Source: a virus
IMG/VR virus record: IMGVR_UViG_3300010233_000325
Span: 1 to 21,200 of that record
Reading direction: 5' to 3' (one strand)
Length of the DNA: 21,200 nucleotides
In this document: positions 7,443-21,200 of the stretch, in pieces
How the letters are laid out: every line of letters starts with the position of its first letter
How positions within the stretch are numbered: position 1 is the stretch's first letter
Position numbers and translations under genes: made by a program
Notes under the pieces: model-generated
Database searches by the model: none
What the model saw: only the letters and a program-made list of their open reading frames with translations
What the model was told of the DNA's origin: nothing

Positions 7443-9517
7443 TGCCTGAAATAACCGTAACCGATGAACAGGGTGTGCAGCATATCTTCCCCGATGGCTC
7501 GACCCCGGAGATGATTGCGAAGGCGTTGAACGTCAAGCCACCCACCCTGCAGAAGAATCAATCTCCCGACATAGGTGTAGCGATGGGCGCAGAGCCGGGA
7601 GAGCTTGCTACTGGATTTAGCCTCCAGGATATAAAGAACGGGTCTTTTGGAATGGGAGCTACCACGTTCGGCTTGAGGCAGGCGGCCCTCGGTGGTCTCG
7701 ACGTTGCCAAAGGAATGGGTTCGCAATTAGCTGAAAATCTGACCGATCCAGTGATGTCTCTTTACCATGCGGGAAAGTCAGTGTATGACCTTGGCAAGCA
7801 AGCTATCGAAGTGCCGGGAGCCATTAAGGACTTGTATCAATCCGACAACGCTCTTGGAGCATTGGCATTGGCGGCTCCCCGCGCCGGTGGACAGGCAGCG
7901 GCAACGGTGGTCGCGCAAGAGGCGGGAGCGAGGATACCCGGAGCAACGGCGAAGGTAGTACAAAAACTGCCTGCGGAATATGCTGCCAAAGTCGTTCCAG
8001 AATCAGCTCTGTCTACCCGCCAACTTGGGGAAATAGCAGCGAAAGATGTTGAGACCAAGGGAAGCAATCTCTCCGCCGCACTCCAGACCGGAGGCAATCC
8101 AAAGGGAAACGTTTTGGTGCATGAGGACATTGGCCGTCCCATATTAGATGACATTCGAGAAGCGGCAGTCAAAGAGGGAGTCACCGCCGATGACTTCAAA
8201 GGCCGACAGGGGTATGATAAAGGCCAACAGCTTACAAAATCTGTCAGAAAGAAGTTTGACGACGCTTATGATTCTCTGGTTGAGCCTGTTGCTGGGAATA
8301 ATGCGGTCGGAGCGGCGAAGACGGCTGCAAAGCAGTTCCTTGGTGAGATGTTGCCGGATGCCAAGCTCATGGACAAGATTACCGGAGGGAACTCGGCAGC
8401 TAAAGTCCAAGCACTAGCCGATGAAATAGCTGACCAGAAAACGATTGGTGACCTCGACAACTTCCGCAAAGACGGTCTGAATCGTGCCGACAAATATGTA
8501 AGCAAAGGCCCCGCCGCACAATATCAATCTCCGGTCATGCAAGAAGCCATCCACCGAGCCGGTAATGCGGTGCGAAAGGCCGTCTATTCCGAGATGGAGC
8601 AGGCTTATGGTGGGCAAATCCCTGAAGAAGTATTGCGGGACTTGCAGAAACGGCATGGAGCAGCCATCCAAGCCGACAATATGATGTCTGAGACACGGCA
8701 GGCATTGAGCAAGATTGCGAGTGAGGAATCCTCTCCCGCAGGGCCTTGGCAGAGATTCAAGGGAGTCGGCTATCGGGGAACGATGGGGAGCAAGGCTCAT
8801 GCTGCCGCCGGACTGGTTGAGAAGCTCCTGCCGCCTTCGGAAATAGAACTATTCAATACCCGAATGCAACGAGTCTTGAAAGACATTTCCCCTGAGACTT
8901 CCGGCTATCAGCCTCCGGTTCCATCATCGGTGGGCGGAGAGTATCTGTCTCCTGAAACACAGAATCCCCGGTCTCCATCGCAAATGAATCTTTCCGAGAC
9001 CGCACCGGGAACCTATGTCGGAATCTCAAAACCACGCCAACTTCCAGAATCAACCACTCCGGTTGGCAAGACGCAGTTGATGAAACTCAATGTGCAAGAT
9101 GTTTTGAAGCAATCAATGGAACGAGTGATAGCAGAGAAAGAAGCCATTAGAGCCAGGGTCGGTGGAGATATGGCTCCATCCGGACAGCCTCCGCGTGGCG
9201 GTGGTGAGGCATTGATACCTCCGAGCATGTTTGGCGGGGATATGGGACAACAGGCTGCTATGAAAATGGGCCGTGTTCCTCCGGAGGGGAAACTTCGAGC
9301 GGAAGTCCCCGCTGGAACAATACCTAAATTACCACCCAATATGCCTAATCGTCCCGCGCTGCCTGCGGAAATGTTCAATCAGAAACTTACAACTCTTGAG
9401 AAAATAAAGGCTGCGGAAATGGCCAGACGTGAAGCGATAAAAGCTATGGAATATCGCTCCAAGATAAATAGAAATCCTAAAACTGGACGAATGGAACGAA
9501 TACAGGAGGGAAAATGA
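7442..9517 (+). CDS. Large probable internal virion / DNA ejection protein (gp16 slot)
   Basis: The product is 691 residues. The opening (MPEITVTDEQGVQHIFPDGS, then TPEMIAKAL) is a small module I recognise from the N-termini of many phage internal or structural proteins. An Ala/Gly-rich segment (about 85-190) could be membrane-active, followed by a long helical core (190-470). The C-terminal 220 residues are Pro/Gly/Ser-rich with basic residues and probably disordered, ending in a Lys/Arg-rich tail. There is no cysteine and no lytic-transglycosylase motif visible. P22 gp16, the third ejection protein, is about 610 residues and sits in this slot. It overlaps its neighbours by one and four bases. 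The ejection role is inferred from synteny and composition. Confidence 0.7.
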   Translation: MPEITVTDEQGVQHIFPDGSTPEMIAKALNVKPPTLQKNQSPDIGVAMGAEPGELATGFSLQDIKNGSFGMGATTFGLRQAALGGLDVAKGMGSQLAENLTDPVMSLYHAGKSVYDLGKQAIEVPGAIKDLYQSDNALGALALAAPRAGGQAAATVVAQEAGARIPGATAKVVQKLPAEYAAKVVPESALSTRQLGEIAAKDVETKGSNLSAALQTGGNPKGNVLVHEDIGRPILDDIREAAVKEGVTADDFKGRQGYDKGQQLTKSVRKKFDDAYDSLVEPVAGNNAVGAAKTAAKQFLGEMLPDAKLMDKITGGNSAAKVQALADEIADQKTIGDLDNFRKDGLNRADKYVSKGPAAQYQSPVMQEAIHRAGNAVRKAVYSEMEQAYGGQIPEEVLRDLQKRHGAAIQADNMMSETRQALSKIASEESSPAGPWQRFKGVGYRGTMGSKAHAAAGLVEKLLPPSEIELFNTRMQRVLKDISPETSGYQPPVPSSVGGEYLSPETQNPRSPSQMNLSETAPGTYVGISKPRQLPESTTPVGKTQLMKLNVQDVLKQSMERVIAEKEAIRARVGGDMAPSGQPPRGGGEALIPPSMFGGDMGQQAAMKMGRVPPEGKLRAEVPAGTIPKLPPNMPNRPALPAEMFNQKLTTLEKIKAAEMARREAIKAMEYRSKINRNPKTGRMERIQEGK

Positions 9518-11277
9518 AATCTAGGACGATGGAACGATTCATTCTCGCCGCTATCATCATTTGGATAGTAATGGCGTTGGCATATTCAGCCCATGCCCAA
9601 GTCCCGGTCACGGTCATGCCTGTGCCGAAAGCGCAGTTCTTCGACAACTCCGGAGTCCCGCTGGCCAATGGGTGTCTGGTCACCTATGCGGCTGGTTCAA
9701 CGACACCGCTGGCTACCTATACCGATTACACGGGGACGGTTCAGAATGCCACTACCATCGACCTTGACTCAGCGGGCAGGGCGAATGTATGGCTGGCAGG
9801 CTCGTCATACAAGTTCGTACTCAAGTCATCTGGCGGCAGTCATTGTGCTTCCGGCTCTACCATCTGGACAGTAGACGGAGTGGACGGGGTATATCTGGAC
9901 TTCTGCGGCCTCTCCGGATGCACGTTCACCGGGGATGTGCTTGGGCCGTCCTTTGGGCAGGTGCGATATACCGACCAATTCGCGTCCATCACATCGGCCT
10001 ATTCGGATGCTGGAACGACTGGCGGAGTCATCATCAACTCCGGGTCATCTGGAAACCCTCCGACAAACTCCAATGCGCTATCGGTGCTGGATTTCAGGCC
10101 ATCTTCAGGTATGTTCTACAGCGGCAAGTACAACGATGTGTCTGACCTGCGCGGGAACATGTGCTTTGGCCTATCTTGTCCGAACACTTGGAACGCATCG
10201 CATTCTGGGAACGTTGGGATGGGAGTGGGTCTGTTCAATGCCCTGACGACTGCCGACAACAATACGGGCATGGGCGACCATGTGTTGCAGCTTGCCACTA
10301 GCGGAACATCGAATGCCGCGTTTGGCAGGGCATCGCTCTCGCATCTGACCACGGGAAACTACAACTCCGCGCTCGGACACGCTTCTGGATTCTCAAGCAC
10401 CACAGGCGGGTTCAACATCTTTATCGGTGACGAGGCGGGATACACTGCGACTCCCGCGAACGCCAATACCACTGACAGCTATACCATCGCTATTGGCTTT
10501 GAGGCGGGGCGCGGTGATGCGACCCCAAGAGACAACTGGGCGGCGATTGGCAAGGGCGCACTAGCGACTTGTTCCAACTGCATGGTCTTGGGTTCGGTAG
10601 GCTCCAATGCCATCAAGGTAGGACTTGGCAATCAGGCTCCCGCCTATACCTTCCACCAGACGGCGAACATCGACAAGTCAACCGTATCGCTCACCGATAT
10701 GTCGTTCTGGGGAACGAATGACGGCTCGGCTCCATTCGGCTTAAAGCTCTCCATCTCTGGGCAGTCAGTAGAGAACACGCGGAGAATAGAGTTTGCCACC
10801 ACCGAACCGGGAAATGCCAACGGCGGAGGACTTGTCCTTCAGCCCGACGCTGGATGGGTGGACATTGGTTCCCGTTCGACTTGTGCCACCGTGTTGTGCA
10901 TCACTGGAACCGCCACGGTAAGCTCTCAAGTCACCGCCGCGACATTCGGAACAGCGACCAACTGCGCTGCGGTAGGTACTGGGGCAAATCCTTCATTGGT
11001 AGCTTGTGCGGCTGCAGCCTCAGGGTCATTCTCATGCGCCACGGCTGCAACCGGGGGGACATGTGTTGTCTCCACTACCGCAGTCACGGCCAACAGCGTG
11101 ATTCTGATTACGGAGGATGACAGCTTAGGGACGAAGCTGAGTGTCACTTGCAACACGGGAACCACGGTATTGCCAGTCCACATGATTGCGGCGCGTTCGG
11201 CAGGAGTGAGTTTCACCATCAATCTTGGTACGGTGACGACCAATCCCGCCTGCTTCAACTATCTGATAGTGAATTGA
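9514..11277 (+). CDS. Signal-peptide-bearing tail fibre with YadA-head-like repeats
   Basis: The product is 587 residues. Residues 1-29 form a Sec signal peptide: basic start, a long hydrophobic core (FILAAIIIWIVMALAY) and an A-H-A|Q cleavage site. Residues 36-123 are a recognised phage fibre N-terminal module (MPVPKAQFFDNSGVPLANG, LDSAGRANVWLAG, W-T-V-D-G-V-D-G). Residues 232-350 hold imperfect 14-17-residue repeats like those of YadA-type adhesin heads. The C-terminal 120 residues are a separate beta, Cys-rich domain. I count 16 cysteines, all after the signal peptide. The start has AGGAGGG at 9504-9510 and overlaps the upstream gene by ATGA; an in-frame ATG at 9529 would give a shorter signal peptide. 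It sits in the P22 tailspike slot, so receptor binding is likely. Its export signal is odd for a virion protein. Confidence 0.78.
   Translation: MKSRTMERFILAAIIIWIVMALAYSAHAQVPVTVMPVPKAQFFDNSGVPLANGCLVTYAAGSTTPLATYTDYTGTVQNATTIDLDSAGRANVWLAGSSYKFVLKSSGGSHCASGSTIWTVDGVDGVYLDFCGLSGCTFTGDVLGPSFGQVRYTDQFASITSAYSDAGTTGGVIINSGSSGNPPTNSNALSVLDFRPSSGMFYSGKYNDVSDLRGNMCFGLSCPNTWNASHSGNVGMGVGLFNALTTADNNTGMGDHVLQLATSGTSNAAFGRASLSHLTTGNYNSALGHASGFSSTTGGFNIFIGDEAGYTATPANANTTDSYTIAIGFEAGRGDATPRDNWAAIGKGALATCSNCMVLGSVGSNAIKVGLGNQAPAYTFHQTANIDKSTVSLTDMSFWGTNDGSAPFGLKLSISGQSVENTRRIEFATTEPGNANGGGLVLQPDAGWVDIGSRSTCATVLCITGTATVSSQVTAATFGTATNCAAVGTGANPSLVACAAAASGSFSCATAATGGTCVVSTTAVTANSVILITEDDSLGTKLSVTCNTGTTVLPVHMIAARSAGVSFTINLGTVTTNPACFNYLIVN
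10207..10563 (+). repeat. YadA-head-like repeats within the tail fibre gene
   Basis: Protein residues 232-350 of the fibre repeat a pattern with small residues and Gly at fixed places: NVGMGVGLFNAL, NTGMGDHVLQL, NAAFGRASLSHL, NSALGHASGFS, NIFIGDEAGY, then TIAIGFEAG and AAIGKGAL. Trimeric autotransporter heads use units of this form (N-x-x-x-x-G-x-x-A/S) to build a left-handed trimeric beta roll. The repeats are divergent at DNA level, so they are old and not a recent tandem duplication. Confidence 0.65.
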
Positions 11278-11284
11278 GGAGACC

Positions 11285-13225
11285 ATGAAGAAACTCATTC
11301 TGTTCCTGCTCTTTAGCATCGCGGCATGGGCAGACTCATCCACGGGCAATATCACCGCTTCAGGTACGACCTGCGGCACGACCAATGCCTGCATCGTCCT
11401 GCATTCATACTCGACCATCGGCAGCGCATCCATTACCGTGACGGGTACATGGAGCGCGACCTTGCAGTTCGAGACTAGCGCGGACGGGTCTACTTGGGCA
11501 GCGGCCACGGGATATTCCGTTCCCACGGGCTCGGCGGCTCAATCCATCACCGCCAATGGGGTCTACCAGTTCAATATGGCGAGCCTGACCTACATCCGTG
11601 TCAGGGGTTCGGCATATACCAGCGGGACGGCGGCCATCCTCATCTCTGGTTCGTCCTCTGACTTTGCTACTGCTATCGCCAATTCCATCATCACCGCGAC
11701 GGTGGCGACTCTGCCGGATGCCTCTGGGTCGACTGGATGGGTGAGGATTGTGACGGATGCACTCACTACCGCCGACTGTACCGTTGGTGGCGGCTCAGCC
11801 TATTCGCTCTGCGTGTCCAACGGCTCGGCATGGGTCAATCCCGGCGGCGGCGGAAGCACCTCTGCGGGTGGTTCAAACGGGCAATTGCAATACAACAACT
11901 CCAATGCCTTTGGCGGCATCACTAATGCCACTTCGGATGGAACCAATGTGTTGAGCATGACCATTTCCGGAACGCTGACTTCCGCTACCATCAACAACAG
12001 CGGGACAATCACGGCTGGAGTGCTTACATCATCCACGGTTCATCCTGCTACCGCCGGAGCCGTACGATTGGCGAATGGCGATGCGATTGACTGGAGGAAC
12101 GCGGCCAATAGCGCGAACATCCCGCTATCGGTGGACAGCAATAATACGCTGGTCATCGGTTCCGGTTCAGGGAATGTACAATCCACATCGTTCTCCCTGT
12201 TGAACGCCGCAGCTCCGGGGTTGACGGCCAATACGTTCACCCTGATTCCTCCAACAACCATCACTACTGCATATTGCTGGTCAGTTCCAGCGGGAGAGAA
12301 CGCCTCTGCCGGACTTCTACATCTTGCTGCTGCATCGGCTCATTGTTCGGCTGGTACTGTCAGCGCAGTCGTTGAATCCGATATTTCATTGTCAGACAAT
12401 ACGACTGGGAACGCATCCACCACGGCTCACGGATTCGTCCTTAAGGGAGACAACAACACCGCGCATTTCCTCCGTGGAGATCAAACCTGGGCTACCCCTC
12501 CCGGCACCACCTATGATTGCACCCTCATCACCGTGTTCTGTGCGGTAGAGGAAATGCCGGGTGGCAACACGACTTCGGGAGCCATCGGCTCTCTGGGATG
12601 GAACAATAGCGCAATCTCATCTGCCGCCGCACTAAGCTATATTGTCTCTACCTTCTCCAACCCCGGAGAGCTTCAATTCACCACCAACACCAGCGCGGGT
12701 AACGGAAGTTATTTTAACCTCGCTGGTTCTGGTTCCGGGTTCTCGCTTGTCGGCAATATCGGCGGCTCGACCAACTGGACAGAGACTTGGATATTCAAAG
12801 TCACCAGCGACGGCACGAAAGAGCGTATCCGCATCGGGTTTGGTGGGACTTCTTCCGTGGTGGAACCCACGGATGGCATCTGGGTGCGCTATGACAAGAA
12901 CGCCACTTATGCTGATACGACATGGCATCTGTGCATCCGGCAGGCTTCGACCAACTCTTGTCAAGCCACTACCAAGACCTTCGATGCCAACTGGCACAAG
13001 GTCGTGATACGCAGCACTTCGTCGGGAGTAATCGGAATCACTTGGGACAGCGATGCCGAACTGACTTGGTGTACGGCTGGGTCGGGATGCACCATCAACT
13101 CCGCAACCTTCCCATCTGTCAGCCTCACCCCAGTAGCCGACATCTGTAATGATGGCACTACCGCCGATGTCACGGTCATCGACTACTTCTCTCTGTTCAT
13201 CACCGGGTTGACGAGGATTCCATAA
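11285..13225 (+). CDS. Signal-peptide-bearing tail fibre / adhesin
   Basis: The product is 646 residues. Residues 1-16 are a short, classic signal peptide (MKKLILFLLFSIAAWA|D). Residues 17-125 form a beta domain with FETSADGSTWAAATGY, a module seen in phage fibres. About 145-180 carries D-C-T-V-G-G-G then C-x-x-x-G-x-x-W, followed by a Gly-rich hinge. The middle is a Ser/Thr/Asn-rich fibre shaft including FLRGDQTWATPPG, a typical phage fibre junction. The C-terminal 220 residues resemble a lectin-like jelly-roll head (GIWVRYDKNATYADTTWHLC). I count 13 cysteines in the mature part. The Shine-Dalgarno is GAGGAG at 11276-11281. It overlaps the next gene by one base. Receptor or surface binding is probable; it is the second of four exported-looking fibre genes. 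Confidence 0.75.
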   Translation: MKKLILFLLFSIAAWADSSTGNITASGTTCGTTNACIVLHSYSTIGSASITVTGTWSATLQFETSADGSTWAAATGYSVPTGSAAQSITANGVYQFNMASLTYIRVRGSAYTSGTAAILISGSSSDFATAIANSIITATVATLPDASGSTGWVRIVTDALTTADCTVGGGSAYSLCVSNGSAWVNPGGGGSTSAGGSNGQLQYNNSNAFGGITNATSDGTNVLSMTISGTLTSATINNSGTITAGVLTSSTVHPATAGAVRLANGDAIDWRNAANSANIPLSVDSNNTLVIGSGSGNVQSTSFSLLNAAAPGLTANTFTLIPPTTITTAYCWSVPAGENASAGLLHLAAASAHCSAGTVSAVVESDISLSDNTTGNASTTAHGFVLKGDNNTAHFLRGDQTWATPPGTTYDCTLITVFCAVEEMPGGNTTSGAIGSLGWNNSAISSAAALSYIVSTFSNPGELQFTTNTSAGNGSYFNLAGSGSGFSLVGNIGGSTNWTETWIFKVTSDGTKERIRIGFGGTSSVVEPTDGIWVRYDKNATYADTTWHLCIRQASTNSCQATTKTFDANWHKVVIRSTSSGVIGITWDSDAELTWCTAGSGCTINSATFPSVSLTPVADICNDGTTADVTVIDYFSLFITGLTRIP

Positions 13226-14430
13226 TGAGATGGCTTGTGTTGCTGTTCGCCTGCACATTGGCGACAGCACAGAACTTCCCGTATAAGGTTGTGAAGGATT
13301 CAGACAACCTTTCGACCACGGGGATCATCGTGTGGCACATCGAGGATTCTACGGGGTCAAACATCACCTCTCCGTCCACATCAAAGTTCCCGGTTGGTGC
13401 TGTGGGATTATGGGTGGCTTATTCACAAGAAGCACTCGCTGGGGCGGTGAACGCCGCTACTCAGCCCTCGACAGGTACTCAGCCGGGGACGGGTGGAACG
13501 GTGATGTGGAGCTACATCGTCGGCAAGCCCCTGACCTTTGCCCCGCCCTTGCCGACCGCCAGCGTTCTCGGAGGAGCGAAGTCATTGACCTGTACCGGGA
13601 CGGACAAGTTCTCAGCACTCGGAACCGATGGCGCGTTCGTGTGTTCGGCAGACGCGGGAGGCGGCGCGGTATCAAGCGTGTTTGGGCGGACTGGTGCTGT
13701 GACCGCCGCGTCGAACGACTATTCTTTCGCGCAGCTATCATCGATTCCGACGACCGTTTCTGGATACGGCATCACCGATGCGGTAACCACGGCGCGGACG
13801 GTATCCACGACATCGCCTCTCGGCGGGGGGGGAGCGTTGTCGGGAAATCTGACGCTTACTTGCACGACCTGTCTGACTGCACTTCCAAACCCATCTTCCT
13901 CGACCCTCGGCGGGGTCAAATCTCTGACCTGTGGCGCGGGAACACACATCCAGACCATCGGAACAGACGGTCTTCCGGTATGCAGTTCCGACTCAGGCGG
14001 CGGCGCAGGCAGCAAACTGTTCGTGACCTCTGCTTATACGAACGCCACGACCAATTTCACCAACGTGTCTGGCTTGTCATTCGCGGTATCGGCCTCGACC
14101 AATTACTACGTCGAGTGCCACATCACATGGCAGGGTTCAGCCACGACCACAGGCCCCAAGTTCCAGTGGACAGGCCCAGCATCGCCGACTGCGGTAGCGG
14201 CTAATGCGACCATCGCCACGACCGTTACGACCCTCCGGCTGGTATCGGCGGTGGCTTTCTCATCCTCAATGGCGCAGTCAGGAACCATCACGGCGACGAC
14301 AAACTTTCCTGCGATCGTGACGGTCGGAGTCGCCAATGGCGCGAACGCCGGGACAGTCCAACTGCAAGCGGCGGCGAACGGAAGCGGAACACTCACAATC
14401 CAACCAGGGAGTTTTTGTGCGGCTCAATAA
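13225..14430 (+). CDS. Signal-peptide-bearing fibre protein with duplicated Cys module
   Basis: The product is 401 residues. Residues 1-16 form a signal peptide (MRWLVLLFACTLATAQ) with an A-T-A|Q site. Residues 17-105 are a beta domain. Two copies of a module of about 40 residues follow (109-148 and 220-260), each with L-G-G-x-K-S-L-T-C, then G-T-D-G-x-x-x-C and a D/S-rich, Gly-rich end. Between them lies VFGRTGAVTAASNDYSF with a later SGYGITDA, classic phage tail fibre shaft motifs. The C-terminal domain (about 262-401) is a jelly-roll-like beta fold. The mature part has eight cysteines. It starts with TAATG overlap to the upstream gene. Its end overlaps the next gene by 14 bases. A fibre or fibre-accessory role is likely; the attachment partner is unknown. 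Confidence 0.72.
   Translation: MRWLVLLFACTLATAQNFPYKVVKDSDNLSTTGIIVWHIEDSTGSNITSPSTSKFPVGAVGLWVAYSQEALAGAVNAATQPSTGTQPGTGGTVMWSYIVGKPLTFAPPLPTASVLGGAKSLTCTGTDKFSALGTDGAFVCSADAGGGAVSSVFGRTGAVTAASNDYSFAQLSSIPTTVSGYGITDAVTTARTVSTTSPLGGGGALSGNLTLTCTTCLTALPNPSSSTLGGVKSLTCGAGTHIQTIGTDGLPVCSSDSGGGAGSKLFVTSAYTNATTNFTNVSGLSFAVSASTNYYVECHITWQGSATTTGPKFQWTGPASPTAVAANATIATTVTTLRLVSAVAFSSSMAQSGTITATTNFPAIVTVGVANGANAGTVQLQAAANGSGTLTIQPGSFCAAQ
13549..13668 (+). repeat. Cys-module repeat, copy 1
   Basis: First copy of a module of about 40 residues in the fibre protein (residues 109-148), with two cysteines 17 residues apart, G-T-D-G between them and a trailing A-D-A-G-G-G. Copy 2 lies at 13882-14004. Similarity is clear in protein and weaker in DNA. 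Confidence 0.65.
13882..14004 (+). repeat. Cys-module repeat, copy 2
   Basis: Second copy (residues 220-260) of the module at 13549-13668, sharing L-G-G-x-K-S-L-T-C, the I/L-G-T-D-G core, a second cysteine and the S-D-S-G-G-G end. The pair of cysteines in each copy could form a disulfide in an oxidising compartment. Confidence 0.65.
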
Positions 14431-16333
14431 TACAGTGAATAAATTGCTGCTCATTCTCATGTTGTCCCTTCCCGCCACGGCGGCGACGAAATACATATCC
14501 ACGCTCGGCAGCAATTCCAACGGGGGAACCAGTTGTAACGATGCCTATCTGACCTTTGCCAAAATCCAGGCCAATACCTCCGGAGGGGACACATGGAAGC
14601 TATGCGATGGCGGCATTACCGTGACCTATTCGGTGGCCGCAGGCACAGGAATCATCGATTGCGCAGCCACGGCCAACGTCCTTTCCGGATGTCCGCCCAG
14701 CGGGTCGGTGGGAAACTACACTCTAGTCCAAGCGCAACACTGTGGCGGATACGTCTATATCACATCGAGTGATGCGGCCTACTCATCCACCAACCTAAGA
14801 CTCAGCACGGCAGCAGCGGCAAGAAACTATGTGCATCTTGATTGTCTGGAGTTTCATAAAGGCCAAGATCAGATAGTCAATGGCGACCACATCTGGATAA
14901 GCAATTGCGGCTTCGGTTCGCAAAGCAACAGCGTGAGCGCGGTATTCGGATTCGGTTCTACCACTACCTCGGTGACCAACTTCCTCGTTCAAGACTCATG
15001 GTTCTGGGGCAGCGAACGGGCGATGATCACAACCTATCGCTCGAACACTGGGGTATGGAGAAGGATAGCCCTGTTCCAGGGCGGTTGTAATGGAGACGGC
15101 ACAGGATCGGCGTGTAACTCTGGCGGGAACTCGCTTCTGGTAAGCACGGTCTACAACTCCGACCACATCAGCCTTCAGAACATGTTGAGCATTGATGCCA
15201 CGCGGGGGACGAACGGAAGGAATGGTGCAGCCGACTTCCAGACCGCGTTCCACAATAACTTCCCGGCGAATGCAGGACTGAACGAATGGCTTGGGACATT
15301 GAGCATCAACAGCAAACTAGACCTCGCATTGATGGAGGCGGATTCCCCAACGGGAGCGGGAACCGATTATGCCCCGTTCTGGAAGGTGGAGAACATGGGA
15401 TTGTTCACCAACGACAATTCCACGCAGGCTGGATTCAGCGCGCTCATCAATGGAACCCCATCGGCCAATGAGACTTACGACTTCCAGAAAATCACCGTAT
15501 ACCGGGGAGCGGACAATACGCTTGATCTGTTCGGAATCAACTCCGGCATGAGCGGTAAAAAGACAGCATTGGGCGACATCAATACTTACGGAGTAGGGCG
15601 ATACGGGTTGTCGTCTCCCGACCAGGCCGATTGCGTCAACACCTATGGAGCGGCTCACAACTACAACCTCACCACCCCGACCAATCACACTGAGACCAAC
15701 CCCAGCGGAACGCTGCTCTATCCGCCAGTATTCCCCACTGGGTCTTTCCTTGATGCGGCCTGTGGCAAGAAGGGGGCTGACAACCGATTCCGCTATGGAG
15801 TGAATGATAGCTTCTACGGGGACGCTAACTTCGACACCATCACCGCGACTTCGGTATGGCCGTGGCCGAATGAGGGCGAGATAAACACCTCCGTTTGCGC
15901 CGACCTTCCAACGACTCCCTATTGTCTCAGTGGATACACCCTGACAACGTATGTCTATTCATACATGGGGAATCCGCCATCTCCGTCATGCGCCATCACG
16001 GCTCCGGCCAATGGAGCCACGGTATCGGGAGCATCCGTAACCATTTCAGGTACAGCGACCAATGGTGCGGTCGGGGGAACCCTCAACACCCAAGTCAACA
16101 TAAACGGCTCATCTCTGGGGACTGTTGTGACTGGCGGAAGCTGGACAAAATCATGGGACACTACCACTGGGGCATATCCTGATGGCGGCTATACCATATC
16201 CGCGACCACGGTGGATGATGCGCAGGTGGTGGCGAATTGCTCAGGCTCGGTGAACGTCACCGTCCACAACGCGGCGGCGGATACCAGCGTAAAGTTTGTG
16301 GGAGCCAAGGTCACGGGGGGTAAAATCAAGTGA
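14417..16333 (+). CDS. Exported beta-helix depolymerase-like protein with C-terminal Ig-like domain
   Basis: The product is 638 residues, with a predicted GTG start at 14417 preceded by AGGGAG at 14406-14411. The frame continues upstream to an ATG at 14336, but that adds a charged stretch in front of an ideal signal peptide (LLLILMLSLPATAA|T), so the GTG is preferred. Residues 25-200 read like the opening of a parallel beta-helix (KYISTLGSNSNGG, YVHLDCLEFHKG, DHIWISNCGFGS), the fold of pectate lyases and many phage depolymerases. About 200-500 continues with beta-helix-like turns. About 523-618 is an Ig-like domain (CAITAPANGATVSGASVTIS, ending GYTISATTVDDAQ), as found in exported bacterial carbohydrate enzymes. 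Fifteen cysteines occur in the mature part. No catalytic residues can be named. Polysaccharide binding or cleavage is inferred from fold. Confidence 0.7.
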   Translation: MRLNNTVNKLLLILMLSLPATAATKYISTLGSNSNGGTSCNDAYLTFAKIQANTSGGDTWKLCDGGITVTYSVAAGTGIIDCAATANVLSGCPPSGSVGNYTLVQAQHCGGYVYITSSDAAYSSTNLRLSTAAAARNYVHLDCLEFHKGQDQIVNGDHIWISNCGFGSQSNSVSAVFGFGSTTTSVTNFLVQDSWFWGSERAMITTYRSNTGVWRRIALFQGGCNGDGTGSACNSGGNSLLVSTVYNSDHISLQNMLSIDATRGTNGRNGAADFQTAFHNNFPANAGLNEWLGTLSINSKLDLALMEADSPTGAGTDYAPFWKVENMGLFTNDNSTQAGFSALINGTPSANETYDFQKITVYRGADNTLDLFGINSGMSGKKTALGDINTYGVGRYGLSSPDQADCVNTYGAAHNYNLTTPTNHTETNPSGTLLYPPVFPTGSFLDAACGKKGADNRFRYGVNDSFYGDANFDTITATSVWPWPNEGEINTSVCADLPTTPYCLSGYTLTTYVYSYMGNPPSPSCAITAPANGATVSGASVTISGTATNGAVGGTLNTQVNINGSSLGTVVTGGSWTKSWDTTTGAYPDGGYTISATTVDDAQVVANCSGSVNVTVHNAAADTSVKFVGAKVTGGKIK

Positions 16334-16675: not shown

Positions 16676-16923
16676 CCCCCGACCCTGTTCTGGCGAAGCT
16701 AGAGGAGTTGCGCTCCGACATTAGCATCCTCTCGGTCAAGCTCTTTGGCGAGGAATCAGGCGAGAACCCCAAAGGCCGACTGCCCCTGCTAGAGTCAGAA
16801 GTCAAATCGGTAAGGGAACAATGCGACAAGCATGAGAACACGAAACACTTTGTCCTCGGAGCCGTGCTGCTCAACATCGGCTCCGCTGGCCTTTGGCTGA
16901 AGTCCCACCTCGGCATCAAATGA
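16672..16923 (+). CDS. Coiled-coil plus C-terminal membrane span protein, XhlA-like holin partner
   Basis: The product is 83 residues with a GTG start overlapping the upstream TGA; GGAG at 16661-16664 supports it. Residues 5-55 are a charged, heptad-like helix (LAKLEELRSDISILSVKL, then LLESEVKSVREQCDKHE), and 59-77 are a hydrophobic span (HFVLGAVLLNIGSAGLWL) with a short basic end. This N-terminal coiled coil and C-terminal span is the architecture of XhlA-type proteins, which work with holins and endolysins in lysis. The next gene (DUF5675) overlaps by ATGA, consistent with a holin-then-lysis-effector order. The family call is by architecture and position, not by a match. Confidence 0.6.
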   Translation: MTPDPVLAKLEELRSDISILSVKLFGEESGENPKGRLPLLESEVKSVREQCDKHENTKHFVLGAVLLNIGSAGLWLKSHLGIK

Positions 16924-17327
16924 TTCTCTACCTCAAGCGCGATACGCTGGGGCCAATATCCTCACAGGGGTCTCTTTGGCTCAACGATGCGCGCTACTGT
17001 GACACCCTAGAGCGTCCGTGGCTCAACAACCAGCCCCAAGTCTCATGTATCCCTGAAGGCGCATACGACATCCGCCTGGATGTCAGCAACCACTTCAAAA
17101 GACTCATGCCGCACGTCCTTGACGTTCCAGGACGCGCAGGAATCCTCATCCATCCCGCCAACTGGGTAGCACAACTCAAAGGCTGCATCGCCGTGGGCAT
17201 GGATCACGGTGCGGACTTCATAGGACGTTCTGAGGCGGCATTTGCCCCGCTGTTCCAAGACATTCAGGAAGCTGAGGACAGGAACGAGCCGGTAAGGCTT
17301 GTGGTGACCAATCCTGTTCCCGCATGA
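16920..17327 (+). CDS. DUF5675 family protein, candidate lysis enzyme
   Basis: The product is 135 residues. The core pattern C-D-T-L-E-R-P-W, then C-I-P-E-G-A-Y, then the block G-R-A-G-I-L-I-H-P-A-N-W-x-x-x-L-K-G-C-I-A-V-G (residues 77-99) is what I know as the DUF5675 family, common in phages and prophages. The paired H-P and K-G-C-I segments recall the His and Gly-Cys active-site region of L,D-transpeptidases (YkuD fold), so a peptidoglycan-acting enzyme is conceivable but unproven. The ATG at 16920 overlaps the upstream TGA; a longer frame to 16893 runs into that gene. It follows the coiled-coil/membrane protein, the position where an endolysin is expected, and no standard lysozyme or amidase is visible. 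Confidence 0.75.
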   Translation: MILYLKRDTLGPISSQGSLWLNDARYCDTLERPWLNNQPQVSCIPEGAYDIRLDVSNHFKRLMPHVLDVPGRAGILIHPANWVAQLKGCIAVGMDHGADFIGRSEAAFAPLFQDIQEAEDRNEPVRLVVTNPVPA

Positions 17328-19039: not shown

Positions 19040-19086
19040 GGGTCTGGTAATAGCTGGCTCCCAAGCTTGGTTCTATTACCAGACCC
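19040..19086 (+). other. Perfect 14-bp inverted repeat / hairpin before the tRNA
   Basis: GGGTCTGGTAATAG (19040-19053) pairs without mismatch to CTATTACCAGACCC (19073-19086) around a 19-base loop. The loop itself contains the palindrome CCAAGCTTGG (19061-19070). No T-run follows, so simple intrinsic termination is doubtful. It ends 11 bases before the predicted tRNA 5' end. It could separate upstream mRNA from the tRNA, for instance as a processing or stability hairpin, or be a binding site for a dimeric protein. Confidence 0.6.
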
Positions 19087-19097
19087 CTTGTCAGAGT

Positions 19098-19172
19098 CGG
19101 GGCATAGTGTAGTGGACGCATCTATGCCTTGGGCGCATATGGAGACTGTTCGATTCAGTCTGCCCCCGACCA
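19098..19172 (+). tRNA. tRNA-Pro(UGG) with encoded CCA and one extra acceptor C
   Basis: All cloverleaf parts can be placed by eye: acceptor 5' CGGGGCA (19098-19104), T8 and A9, D arm GTGT/GCAT with GG in its loop (19107-19121), and anticodon stem TATGC/GCATA (19123-19127 and 19135-19139). The loop is CTTGGGC, giving anticodon TGG at 19130-19132 with T33 and G37 as in proline tRNAs. A four-base variable loop precedes T stem GACTG/CAGTC with loop TTCGATT (19144-19160). The 3' acceptor reads TGCCCCCG, then A and CCA. It has one C more than needed to pair with CGGGGCA; without it, C1-G72, A73 and CCA would be the canonical proline tRNA end. The gene lies between two CDSs, 17 bases before the next ATG. 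Confidence 0.82.
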
Positions 19173-19189: not shown

Positions 19190-19828
19190 ATGTTGAGTGG
19201 ACTCAAGGCCGCGCTCTACATCTGCGGCATAGCACTTTTGCTCGCGCTAGTCTGGGGCGTGTTTCGCTTTGTCGCACTAGCGGAACACGCCTCGGCTACT
19301 TTGGACGCTTCGGTGAACCAGTTGCAGCCGAAGGTGGCGCGCTCTCTGGACTTGGGGAACCGGGTGCTGATGGAGGCGAGTTTTGCGGCGAAGGCTGGCC
19401 GCCAAGCATCCCAAGCATCCATAGCATCGGTGGATAAGGCAAACAAGACGCTTGATTTAACGCAGCAGACCCTGACCGCTGTAACATCCTCTCTTGAATC
19501 AGTGACACGCGACACGCACACGGTAGCCCTGTCAGCGGTCGCAACAATAGACAAAACGGGCTATGCTGTGGATGCAGCCACCACCTCAATCGAGAAAATA
19601 GGTCTCGCAGCCGATTCAGTACAGACACTTGTATCCTCCCCTGACATCAAAATGACCTTCGAAAACATGAACAAGACCACCCGCGAGCTTTCCGGCATAG
19701 CCGAGGATGGGCATCTGGTGACGACATATTATCGCAAGCAGCTCACCCATCCCGCCGGATTCTTCAAGTCGCTACTGAAAGAGCTAATCCCGCTGGCCGC
19801 GCAGTCGCGCATCCTGTTCAGCCGCTAG
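19190..19828 (+). CDS. Membrane-anchored helical protein, unknown function
   Basis: The product is 212 residues. Residues 7-28 are one hydrophobic span (AALYICGIALLLALVWGVF) behind a short Lys-containing N-terminus. Residues 32-165 form a long Ala/Ser/Thr/Val-rich helix with heptad-like spacing, reminiscent of a periplasmic or cytoplasmic stalk. The C-terminus (YYRKQLTHPAGFFKSLLKEL) is a more conserved-looking amphipathic segment. The ATG at 19190 is preferred because the longer frame from 19067 would run through the tRNA. The Shine-Dalgarno is weak (AAGAAG). A spanin-like or superinfection-exclusion role can be imagined, but no family is recognised. It converges on the minus-strand operon with only four bases between stop codons. 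Confidence 0.65.
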   Translation: MLSGLKAALYICGIALLLALVWGVFRFVALAEHASATLDASVNQLQPKVARSLDLGNRVLMEASFAAKAGRQASQASIASVDKANKTLDLTQQTLTAVTSSLESVTRDTHTVALSAVATIDKTGYAVDAATTSIEKIGLAADSVQTLVSSPDIKMTFENMNKTTRELSGIAEDGHLVTTYYRKQLTHPAGFFKSLLKELIPLAAQSRILFSR

Positions 19829-19832
19829 TCAA

Positions 19833-20198
19833 TCATTTCTTGCCGATGTATTTCTGTAATATTGGCGGTATTCGAGTAATGCCACAAATAGAGCAGGCTT
19901 GCATCCTGTGCCAAGATGTCTCAAATCCCCTATCATATTCAACCATTCCGAACGGTGTCACCTTCCAGTAGGGCGAGTCGATGGAATGGTCGTGGGGTTT
20001 GCATAGCTCAACGATTCCCGGCTTGGCTATGCAATCGGTAGCGGCTGAACCATCATCAACAATTACCCAATGGTAACCATCGAACCTCTGTGTTTCCCCG
20101 TTTGAATAATGTCGCATCGTTCCGGGGATGATCTTCTTCTGCCCCCATGCGGCTCCGCAGAGGGCGGCTAGCGCGGCGATGAGCGAGCGACGGTTCAT
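19833..20198 (-). CDS. Exported small protein, unknown function
   Basis: The product is 121 residues, last gene of the minus-strand operon. Residues 1-19 form a signal peptide (MNRRSLIAALAALCGAAWG|Q). The Cys at residue 14 is not in a good lipobox, so it is probably soluble or periplasmic rather than a lipoprotein. The mature part contains an early beta-like YHWVIVDDG segment, two Cys flanking I-A-K-P-G-I-V-E-L, a His/Asp-rich stretch (KPHDHSIDSPYW) and a C-S-I-C-G-I-T motif near the end, which together could bind metal or form disulfides. No family is recognised. It overlaps the upstream gene by ATGA, so the two are coupled and probably act in the same compartment. Confidence 0.65.
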   Translation of the reverse strand: MNRRSLIAALAALCGAAWGQKKIIPGTMRHYSNGETQRFDGYHWVIVDDGSAATDCIAKPGIVELCKPHDHSIDSPYWKVTPFGMVEYDRGFETSWHRMQACSICGITRIPPILQKYIGKK

Positions 20199-20827
20199 TT
20201 GATATTCTCCACATTATTGATTTCCAACTTCGGTCGGACGCAAAGTGGCGCATCATGGTTACGAGATTCCTTCGGAGTGAACCATTCCGCCGCGAATCCA
20301 TCGGGACAGAGGTATTCATTTTGATTTGCTATTCTCGCATGGTCTAGTTGATATCTATACCGCATCGTCACTTCAACGGCGGTCGGTTCAACGGTCTCAT
20401 GGGTCTTCATTACTTGGATAAGCCGTAGATATTCTTTGTAATGCGCGTGGCACGATGGGACTTGATTCCATTGCGAGATTTTGTTGTATAGTTTTTTGTC
20501 GTTGCACGGGAACACGGCTACAATCCGACCCGACGCGGTCTCAAATGGACAATGCCATTCTTTGTTGGTGTCAAGAAATGCAAATCGGCATGTCGGCCCC
20601 GTATAGTCTCCATAAACAGTCGTCCACTTCAATTCAGTGATTGGTTTTCTTTGGGTAGGAGATTCCGACATGTCCCACTTGTTCTCGGAACGACAGTAGG
20701 CGAAACCCTCATATCCAATAATGGCGTCACCTACCTTGCAAGTATTCGGCGGGGTGAACTCTTGAGCTTGACAAACAACGGTCATCGCGATCACAGCGAG
20801 CATAACTACTAACTGTCGGTGGTTCAT
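20195..20827 (-). CDS. Exported Cys-containing protein, unknown function
   Basis: The product is 210 residues. Residues 1-21 are a signal peptide (MNHRQLVVMLAVIAMTVVCQA|Q). The mature part is rich in aromatic residues and has eight cysteines spaced through the chain, consistent with disulfides in the periplasm or outside the cell. The early part has C-K-V-G-D-A-I-I-G-Y-E-G-F-A-Y-C, which suggests a small Cys-bridged beta unit. The rest mixes charged helix (SCHAHYKEYLRLIQVMKTHE) and beta. I recognise no domain. The start overlaps the upstream gene stop and the end overlaps the downstream start, both by ATGA. Base composition is lower in G+C than the phage structural genes (25 of 60 G or C in 20461-20520). 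Confidence 0.66.
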   Translation of the reverse strand: MNHRQLVVMLAVIAMTVVCQAQEFTPPNTCKVGDAIIGYEGFAYCRSENKWDMSESPTQRKPITELKWTTVYGDYTGPTCRFAFLDTNKEWHCPFETASGRIVAVFPCNDKKLYNKISQWNQVPSCHAHYKEYLRLIQVMKTHETVEPTAVEVTMRYRYQLDHARIANQNEYLCPDGFAAEWFTPKESRNHDAPLCVRPKLEINNVENIK

Positions 20828-21027
20828 TTCTTCCTCCGCTTGGGTAGAATCTCGGTCACGGAAACTTCTACCAATGTGATGCGTCCGGCAGCAACAACAT
20901 TCTTGTTTTTCGTGAAGTCCTGAGCGTGTTTCTTGCTGCTGAATAATATTGCTCTGGTTTCTGGTGCTAACAATAGGGCTTCAACGCGCCACGCCTTCTG
21001 CTTGAAATTTATGGGCTTACGTTGCAT
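20824..21027 (-). CDS. Small basic protein heading the minus-strand operon
   Basis: The product is 67 residues, strongly basic (MQRKPINFKQKAWRVEALLL, ending EILPKRRKK). The middle holds one predicted helix with a SSKKHAQDFTKNKN stretch, then a beta segment (RITLVEVSVTEI). No signal peptide and no known family. The ATG at 21025-21027 is chosen because a strong Shine-Dalgarno (AAGGAGGAG on the minus strand) precedes it. The frame stays open up to an ATG at 21103-21105 that lacks such a site. Its stop overlaps the start of the exported-protein gene by ATGA. Its basic character would fit nucleic-acid binding, perhaps regulation of its own operon, but this is inference. Confidence 0.55.
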   Translation of the reverse strand: MQRKPINFKQKAWRVEALLLAPETRAILFSSKKHAQDFTKNKNVVAAGRITLVEVSVTEILPKRRKK

Positions 21028-21044
21028 CTCTCTCCTCCTTGCTA

Positions 21045-21200
21045 TTATCTCCACGGTCTTGCTTCCCAAAAACTTCCCCAACCACACCAAGGAATTTGAT
21101 ACCACCTTCCAAGTATAGGAGGGCGTAGGAGCCTAAACCACGCTTTAATGCCTTCCCTTTTACTAACTAATGCCCATGCCACAAAAGGAGCATCGAGCGG
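21045..21200 (-). other. Right-edge stretch with an open minus-strand frame, status unclear
   Basis: From the right edge, one minus-strand frame stays open for 51 codons until TAA at 21045-21047 and would encode a Trp-rich peptide (eight Trp). A second frame is open for 11 codons, ending CSFCGMGIS at 21163-21165, which could be the tail of a zinc-binding protein. Neither has a visible start in the window. The stretch also carries the candidate promoter. I cannot tell whether it is coding. Confidence 0.2.
21112..21140 (-). promoter_or_regulatory. Weak candidate promoter for the minus-strand operon
   Basis: On the minus strand TATACT (21112-21117) matches the -10 consensus at five of six bases. 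A poor -35 (TGGTTT, 21135-21140) lies 17 bases upstream. A second -10-like GATAAT is just ahead of the ribosome site of the first operon gene. Either could start the operon; neither is strong. Confidence 0.22.

What the first reader, a model, noticed from the sequence alone, without database searches (positions are those of the whole stretch)
19833..21027. Convergent three-gene operon for exported proteins, likely moron
Three coupled minus-strand genes (a basic intracellular protein, then two signal-peptide proteins) face the late operon with four bases between stops. Composition is visibly more A+T-rich than the structural genes (25 of 60 G+C in 20461-20520 versus 35 of 60 in 15001-15060). 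Opposite strand, own ribosome sites and export signals fit an acquired cargo unit acting on the host envelope, such as superinfection exclusion or host fitness. None of the three is recognised.
Basis: partly seen in the sequence, partly recalled or inferred. Interest (0 to 1): 0.58.

Follow-up and report, generated by a model that had tools for sequence, protein, structure and literature searches.

The report
Exported orphan genes ending phage operon
Three small, unrecognised phage genes, two of which carry export signals, are the last genes of a longer operon rather than a separate inserted unit, and the phage belongs to a lineage whose tail-fibre proteins unexpectedly carry export signals too.

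Summary
In detail: three minus-strand genes (P3 67 aa, P2 210 aa, P1 121 aa), each overlapping the next by 4 nt, end 4 nt from the last plus-strand late gene. P3 is basic and leaderless; P2 and P1 carry Sec-type signal sequences. They are more A+T-rich (48.5% G+C) than any late stretch of equal size. No family or homologue was found.

The moron reading is weakened. The minus-strand operon continues upstream across a 46-N gap: further genes joined by the same 4-nt overlaps, one junction carrying the same 15-nt Shine-Dalgarno element that precedes P3. In six of six annotated relatives examined the structural block meets an opposite-strand block tail to tail, so opposite strand is the usual plan (not universal: relative G001 is unidirectional). 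Best reading: distal, fast-changing end of the early operon, encoding two envelope-targeted accessory proteins. Their exact function is a guess.

Export signals are not special to the cassette. Four tail genes in the late operon also carry them. The tail-fibre anchor domain has a signal-like leader in 7 of 59 records that hold it; on a tree of the head-closure protein, all seven lie in one clade of 11 rows with 100/100 support. That lineage trait is the more surprising result.

The parts
19833..20198 (-). P1, 121 aa: signal sequence MNRRSLIAALAALCGAAWG|Q, mature part with 4 Cys (CxxH / CxxC spacing)
   Evidence: no family or homologue; weak unconvincing hits
20195..20827 (-). P2, 210 aa: signal sequence MNHRQLVVMLAVIAMTVVCQA|Q, mature part with 8 Cys
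   Evidence: signal judged by eye (the script missed it because of Cys at -3); no convincing homologue
20824..21027 (-). P3, 67 aa, net charge +11, no Cys, no signal; preceded by AAGGAGGAGAGAG
   Evidence: no homologue
21017..21112 (-). possible further minus-strand gene end (...GDNSKEERDAT) overlapping the start of P3; its C-terminus resembles the ...ALKEERDR end of the gene across the gap; start uncertain
21163..21200 (-). C-terminal end (ARCSFCGMGIS) of a minus-strand ORF that runs into the N gap (G000 21201-21246); its ATG overlaps the stop of the 89-aa gene at G000 21255-21524 by 4 nt, which in turn overlaps a gene at 21521-21736 by 4 nt
19190..19828 (+). last gene of the late operon, 212 aa, N-terminal hydrophobic segment, weak coiled-coil/tail-type family matches only
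9514..11277 (+). tail-fibre/spike gene: signal sequence (...YSAHA|QVPVTV) before the tail-fibre anchor domain; AGGAGG site 4 nt before the ATG
11285..13225 (+). tail-region gene with signal sequence MKKLILFLLFSIAAWA|DSS
13225..14430 (+). tail-region gene with signal sequence MRWLVLLFACTLATA|QNF
14411..16333 (+). tail-region gene with a Big_7 domain and a likely signal sequence (...LLLILMLSLPATA|ATK); start codon uncertain

Best explanation
The three genes are the distal end of a longer minus-strand, non-structural (probably early) operon of a P22-like podovirus (P22-like by its head-closure/gp10 protein) that converges on the late operon. P3 is a small basic cytoplasmic protein. P2 and P1 are exported by the host Sec system, cleaved by signal peptidase I (leaving Gln at +1) and probably disulphide-bonded or metal-binding in the periplasm or outer membrane. 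There they most likely adjust the envelope of the infected cell, with blocking of superinfection or masking of receptor the leading guess. Shown: gene anatomy, coupling, operon continuation, orphan status, lineage context. Predicted: export. Inferred: early timing. Guessed: the envelope function.
For: 4-nt overlaps at P3/P2 and P2/P1 and again at both readable upstream junctions; a 15-nt leader (CAAGGAGGAGAGAGA) present exactly twice, before P3 and before the gap ORF; in 6 of 6 annotated relatives examined an opposite-strand block meets the late block tail to tail, with DNA polymerase in that block in P26218, MW202557 and OR003940; the related uncultivated record G014 has the same plan and a signal-bearing protein near the distal end of its minus block (L111:1499-2164); signal sequences on P1 and P2 with even Cys counts (4 and 8) in the mature parts and none in P3; other signal sequences of this lineage also mostly have Gln at +1.
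Against: No replication gene is seen on the minus strand of this 21.7-kb record, so 'early' rests on comparison. Among relatives, G001 (inside the same clade) is unidirectional. The cassette is more A+T-rich (48.5%) than the upstream minus genes past the gap (53.9%), whereas in six named relatives the junction block is not unusual for its genome; this leaves room for acquisition. Near-junction genes of those six relatives, 27 examined, gave no signal-sequence hit, so export from this position is not a general rule.
Confidence: 0.6

Rival explanations
1. A true moron: an independently transcribed, horizontally acquired cargo unit inserted between converging operons, acting on the host envelope (superinfection exclusion or fitness).
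For: Lower G+C than all 373 late windows and than the upstream minus genes, atypical codon use, export signals, absence of homologues in 40 related records.
Against: Operon continues upstream with identical coupling style and a repeated leader; no promoter or terminator signal above shuffles; no bacterial donor found for P2 in the pattern scan of genome contigs or in 195 and 398 sampled genomes of two phyla (one spurious hit); strand opposition is the normal plan.
Confidence: 0.2
2. A lysis-timing or envelope-integrity module: P1/P2 act in the periplasm as regulators of lysis (lysis inhibition or anti-holin-like).
For: Exported, Cys-rich, next to the end of the late operon, which holds small membrane-type ORFs and a DUF5675 gene.
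Against: Wrong strand for late expression; no match to holin, spanin or antiholin families in the libraries searched.
Confidence: 0.12
3. Signal sequences are misread: the N-terminal hydrophobic segments are membrane anchors or chance, and the proteins are ordinary small non-structural phage proteins.
For: P1 shows CxxH/CxxC spacing that could be a cytosolic zinc ribbon; P2's cleavage region is not canonical (Cys at -3); predicted structures were poor.
Against: Both proteins have a charged n-region, hydrophobic core and Gln at +1 like other leaders in this lineage; the same script finds 1 signal in 249 ORFs of six named relatives.
Confidence: 0.08

Closest known systems
Porphyromonas gingivalis phages (proposed family Nixviridae) with 'Q-rule' signal-peptide genes (PMC10367356; passages seen)
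   Different: Different phage group; the passages seen speak of capsid, spanin and unknown genes, not of tail fibres; host of the present phage unknown.
Superinfection-exclusion proteins such as Ltp (PMC3952083) and P22 SieA (PMC10883804) (starts of abstracts seen in the listing)
   Same: Phage-encoded proteins that interfere with superinfection, as a functional analogy.
   Different: No similarity to any such family in the libraries searched; those are encoded by temperate phages; here no lysogeny gene is visible and the genes end a longer operon.
Rhodoferax phage P26218 and MW202557 (P22-like podoviruses)
   Same: Same head module (gp10/Hc3 about 36% identical) and an opposite-strand replication block ending next to the late block.
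   Different: Their last non-structural genes have no signal sequences in the script and their tail-fibre domain starts without a leader.

Membership tests
Phage moron | Independent transcription unit (own promoter and terminator) | tested here: inconclusive
   Promoter and terminator scan within shuffle range and the operon continues upstream of P3, which speaks against it; but a consensus scan is weak evidence for an unknown host and there are no RNA data
Phage moron | Composition differs from neighbours | tested here: met
   48.5% vs 51.0-60.3% in 373 late windows and 53.9% in the post-gap minus genes
Phage moron | Present/absent as a unit among close relatives | tested here: inconclusive
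   No homologue in 40 related records, but none is close and many are fragments
Phage moron | Expressed from the prophage / alters the lysogen | not testable with these tools
   Only about half of a genome (judged by relatives of 33-44 kb) is held; no RNA data
Sec/SPase I-exported proteins | n-region charge, hydrophobic core, small residues at -3/-1 | tested here: met
   P1 by script (score 3.82, under the cut-off of 4 used later) and by eye; P2 by eye only, with Cys at -3; no SignalP available
P22-like podovirus (head module) | gp10/Hc3 head-closure protein and related major head protein | tested here: met
   phrog_578 E=1.9e-104, phrog_283 E=6e-44
Superinfection exclusion protein | Sequence or experimental evidence of blocking adsorption or injection | not tested
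   No family match; needs experiment

The most novel reading that the evidence does not exclude
The window comes from a lineage of P22-like podoviruses that runs an export programme: its tail-fibre/spike proteins are sent through the host Sec system, and accessory early proteins such as P2 and P1 are exported as well. Tail fibres would then either join virions outside the cytoplasm (in the periplasm or at lysis) or act as secreted receptor-blocking or matrix-degrading proteins, unlike the textbook cytoplasmic assembly of tailed phages.
Probability: 0.35. Interest if true: 0.78.

Novelty: new variant of a known kind. Interest (0 to 1): 0.48.

Why it matters
The cassette alone is a modest find: new exported orphan genes at a variable operon end. 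The context matters more. A tail-fibre domain that starts without a leader in 52 of 59 records has a signal-like leader in one well-supported clade. If those fibres really pass through Sec, the cytoplasmic-assembly model for tailed phages needs an exception, and secreted fibres would offer a simple way for an infected cell to exclude rivals. Both are directly testable with virion proteomics and reporter fusions.

Tried and rejected
Homologue searches that led nowhere: viral contigs pattern scans with P2, P1, a P1 piece, the metallophosphoesterase, the last late gene and the 89-aa minus gene; genome contigs with P2; phages and plasmids by tblastn (plasmids with P2 only); PDB by sequence (one hit at E 0.73); Pfam, PHROGs, NCBIfam, PADLOC (best PHROG hit for P2 E 0.0049, not credited); 6 and then 40 related records (for P2, 40 of the 85 loci then fetched with the head-closure query; two hits to P1 at E 0.002-0.003 with stop codons inside, rejected); 195 and 398 genomes of two phyla with P2 (one hit at E 7e-4 in a 60-aa frame with two stops, rejected). 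phmmer of P1-P3 against 17,461 ORFs of all loci then held found only themselves.

Structure prediction of P2 and P1 gave mean pLDDT 40.9 and 46.2; no fold search was run on such models.

Considered and rejected: that G+C alone proves acquisition; that the opposite strand alone is unusual. The host could not be named: Gln at +1 is described as a Bacteroidetes feature (PMC5837995, start of abstract in a listing and one passage), but I recall similar leaders in Acidobacteria from memory only, and no call settles it. Rfam found nothing at gathering thresholds, although ARAGORN calls a tRNA-Pro.

The signal-sequence script is home-made; it missed the leader of 9514 (Glu in n-region) and P2, and scored P1 3.82, under the cut-off of 4. 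A count of 25 of 319 ORFs in eight records (window included) versus 1 of 249 in six named phages used records some of which were chosen after signals had been seen in them, so only the domain survey and tree are relied on. The same script gave signal hits downstream of the head-closure gene in 5 of 80 loci. The tree held 38 rows: the window, six named phages and 31 of the 85 loci that fetched with the head-closure query, picked after the domain survey because their fibre was readable, plus four near relatives whose fibre is not.

Full report
WHAT IS THERE. The window is bases 1-21200 of a 21,736-base virus record. Its plus strand carries a late module with a major head protein (phrog_283, E 6e-44), the head-closure protein Hc3/gp10 (phrog_578, E 1.9e-104), a DNA-ejection protein (phrog_598, E 3e-26) and tail-region genes. 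Towards its end lie a DUF5675 gene, a metallophosphoesterase-like gene (phrog_221, E 4.4e-30) and a tRNA-Pro (19097-19172); the last gene stops at 19828. Four bases later, on the other strand, is the stop of P1. P1 (19833-20198), P2 (20195-20827) and P3 (20824-21027) overlap by 4 nt each. P3 has a strong AAGGAGG site.

IS IT MORE THAN CHANCE. Single ORFs of these sizes are not very rare in shuffles of this stretch: 6 of 300 shuffles hold one of at least 210 aa and 103 of 300 one of at least 121 aa. The case rests on the combination: three coupled frames, a Shine-Dalgarno site, two signal sequences, and even numbers of cysteines in the mature parts of P1 (4) and P2 (8) with none in P3. P3 has net charge +11.

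THE UNIT IS LONGER THAN THREE GENES. Beyond the window end there is a run of 46 N (G000 21201-21246; I cannot tell whether it is an assembly gap or a masked stretch), then 490 more bases. On the same minus strand these hold a gene of at least 71 aa (21521-21736) that overlaps by 4 nt an 89-aa gene (21255-21524), whose stop in turn overlaps by 4 nt the ATG of an ORF running into the gap; if the gap length is exact, that ORF ends at 21163 after a CxxC motif. The 15-nt sequence TCTCTCTCCTCCTTG (minus strand CAAGGAGGAGAGAGA) occurs exactly twice in the stretch searched, before P3 and before that ORF; at both places it also encodes ...KEERD at the end of the preceding frame. So P3-P2-P1 look like the last genes of one operon. 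The two readable upstream genes have no family match either.

COMPOSITION. The cassette is 48.5% G+C; 373 late windows of the same size lie between 51.0 and 60.3%; the post-gap minus genes are 53.9% and 21028-21200 is 48.6%. So the drop is real and covers the distal operon end, not the whole minus strand. In six named relatives the block next to the junction is not unusual against the late block of the same genome. This is the best remaining support for recent acquisition or relaxed change.

COMPARISON WITH RELATIVES. tblastn with Hc3 finds 45 phage records, all under 60% identity. I read the annotation of six: P26218, MW202557, OR003940, MW202483, MW202573 and MG592550. In 6 of 6 the late block is met tail to tail by a block on the other strand; DNA polymerase lies in that block in P26218, MW202557 and OR003940. 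The uncultivated record G014 has the same plan, with a 221-aa signal-bearing protein on the minus strand near the distal end (L111:1499-2164). Not all agree: G001 is almost wholly on one strand, and G011 mostly so. I conclude that strand opposition here is a layout common in this kind of phage, and infer, without expression data, that the minus operon is early.

ORPHAN STATUS. P1-P3 have no credible relative in any search (listed under Tried and rejected), including 40 records of related phages and ORFs of all loci then held. As related records are distant or partial, this does not show insertion.

EXPORT IS A TRAIT OF THE PHAGE LINEAGE. The late genes at 9514, 11285, 13225 and about 14411 also begin with signal sequences. 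The gene at 9514 carries the tail-fibre anchor domain, and its ATG with the leader has its own AGGAGG site, while the internal Met before the domain has none. I searched all loci then held (window included, L001 and L002 left out as copies) with a profile of this domain built from seven sequences. It occurs in 59 distinct records at E 1e-5 or better. In 7 (window, L022, L024, L025, L003, L029, and G013 through L107) a hydrophobic, signal-like segment precedes it; in the other 52 there is none, the domain mostly starting within 12 residues of the first Met. The 52 include 11 named phage records and 6 bacterial loci. Of the 10 named phage records hit, nine were checked by annotated start or by translation and none has a leader; the tenth, KP792623, carries the same name, length and match as P26218 and was not opened. 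In the records of the signal-bearing group no second, leaderless copy of the domain was found; for G001, G009, G013 and G014 all bases were searched, as pieces.

ONE CLADE. A maximum-likelihood tree of Hc3 (38 rows) puts the seven signal-bearing rows and four rows whose fibre is not readable (L023, L026, L027, L031) together with 100/100 support; all 27 leaderless rows lie on the other side. The leader therefore needs one change on this tree, the unreadable rows set aside. Some rows have long branches (L003, L007, MG592550, MW202573, L078), as the tool warns, and the root is drawn at the midpoint. The nearest row to the window is L022, 50% identical.

GLN AT +1. Most leaders seen in the lineage leave Gln after the predicted cut: P1, P2, 9514, 13225, L024 (two), L022, L003 (three), L029 (two) and L110:11893, though not 11285 or 14411. 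A Gln at +1 is described as the Bacteroidetes Q-rule (PMC5837995, seen in the listing and one passage). P. gingivalis phages were reported to encode Q-rule signal-peptide proteins of unknown function, taken as a sign of adaptation to host secretion (PMC10367356, passages seen). I recall similar leaders in Acidobacteria, which is memory, not a test.

MECHANISM. Shown: gene order, coupling, operon continuation, orphan status, leaders on tail genes in one clade. Predicted: Sec export of P1 and P2. Inferred: early expression. Guessed: function in the envelope, with superinfection blocking or receptor masking first. Exported early proteins together with exported fibres would fit a phage that reshapes the surface of the infected cell, but nothing here tests that.

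LITERATURE. Nine searches of the held open-access library gave no paper that I recognised, from listings, as describing tail fibres with Sec leaders; this is a statement about those searches only.

VERDICT. Observation confirmed; interpretation partly supported. The cassette is a new set of orphan exported genes at an operon end, modest by itself. The lineage-wide leader on a tail-fibre domain deserves follow-up on its own.

Noticed in passing
9514-11277, 11285-13225, 13225-14430, 14411-16333: Four consecutive tail-region genes begin with Sec-type signal sequences; for the tail-fibre anchor domain this is restricted to one Hc3 clade (7 of 59 records).
   Followed up: yes
19097-19172: ARAGORN calls a tRNA-Pro (anticodon TGG) between two late genes; Rfam at gathering threshold lists nothing there.
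   Followed up: no
about 19040-19085: A long near-perfect hairpin-like stretch (GGTCTGGTAATAG...CTATTACCAGACC) just upstream of the tRNA gene, possibly a terminator or processing site.
   Followed up: no
G000 21201-21246 (just past the window): Run of 46 N that interrupts a minus-strand ORF of the same operon.
   Followed up: partly
L002 2128-2142 and 2363-2377: Exact 15-nt repeat that serves both as Shine-Dalgarno leader and as the coding end (...KEERD) of the preceding frame.
   Followed up: partly
16893-17327: DUF5675 protein (E 1.3e-26); matches in phages from human faeces are annotated as transpeptidase or L,D-carboxypeptidase, a possible cell-wall enzyme.
   Followed up: no
L011:653-1183 and 22-519 (record G001): Relative G001 has further signal-bearing ORFs at the end of its late block, on the same strand.
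   Followed up: no
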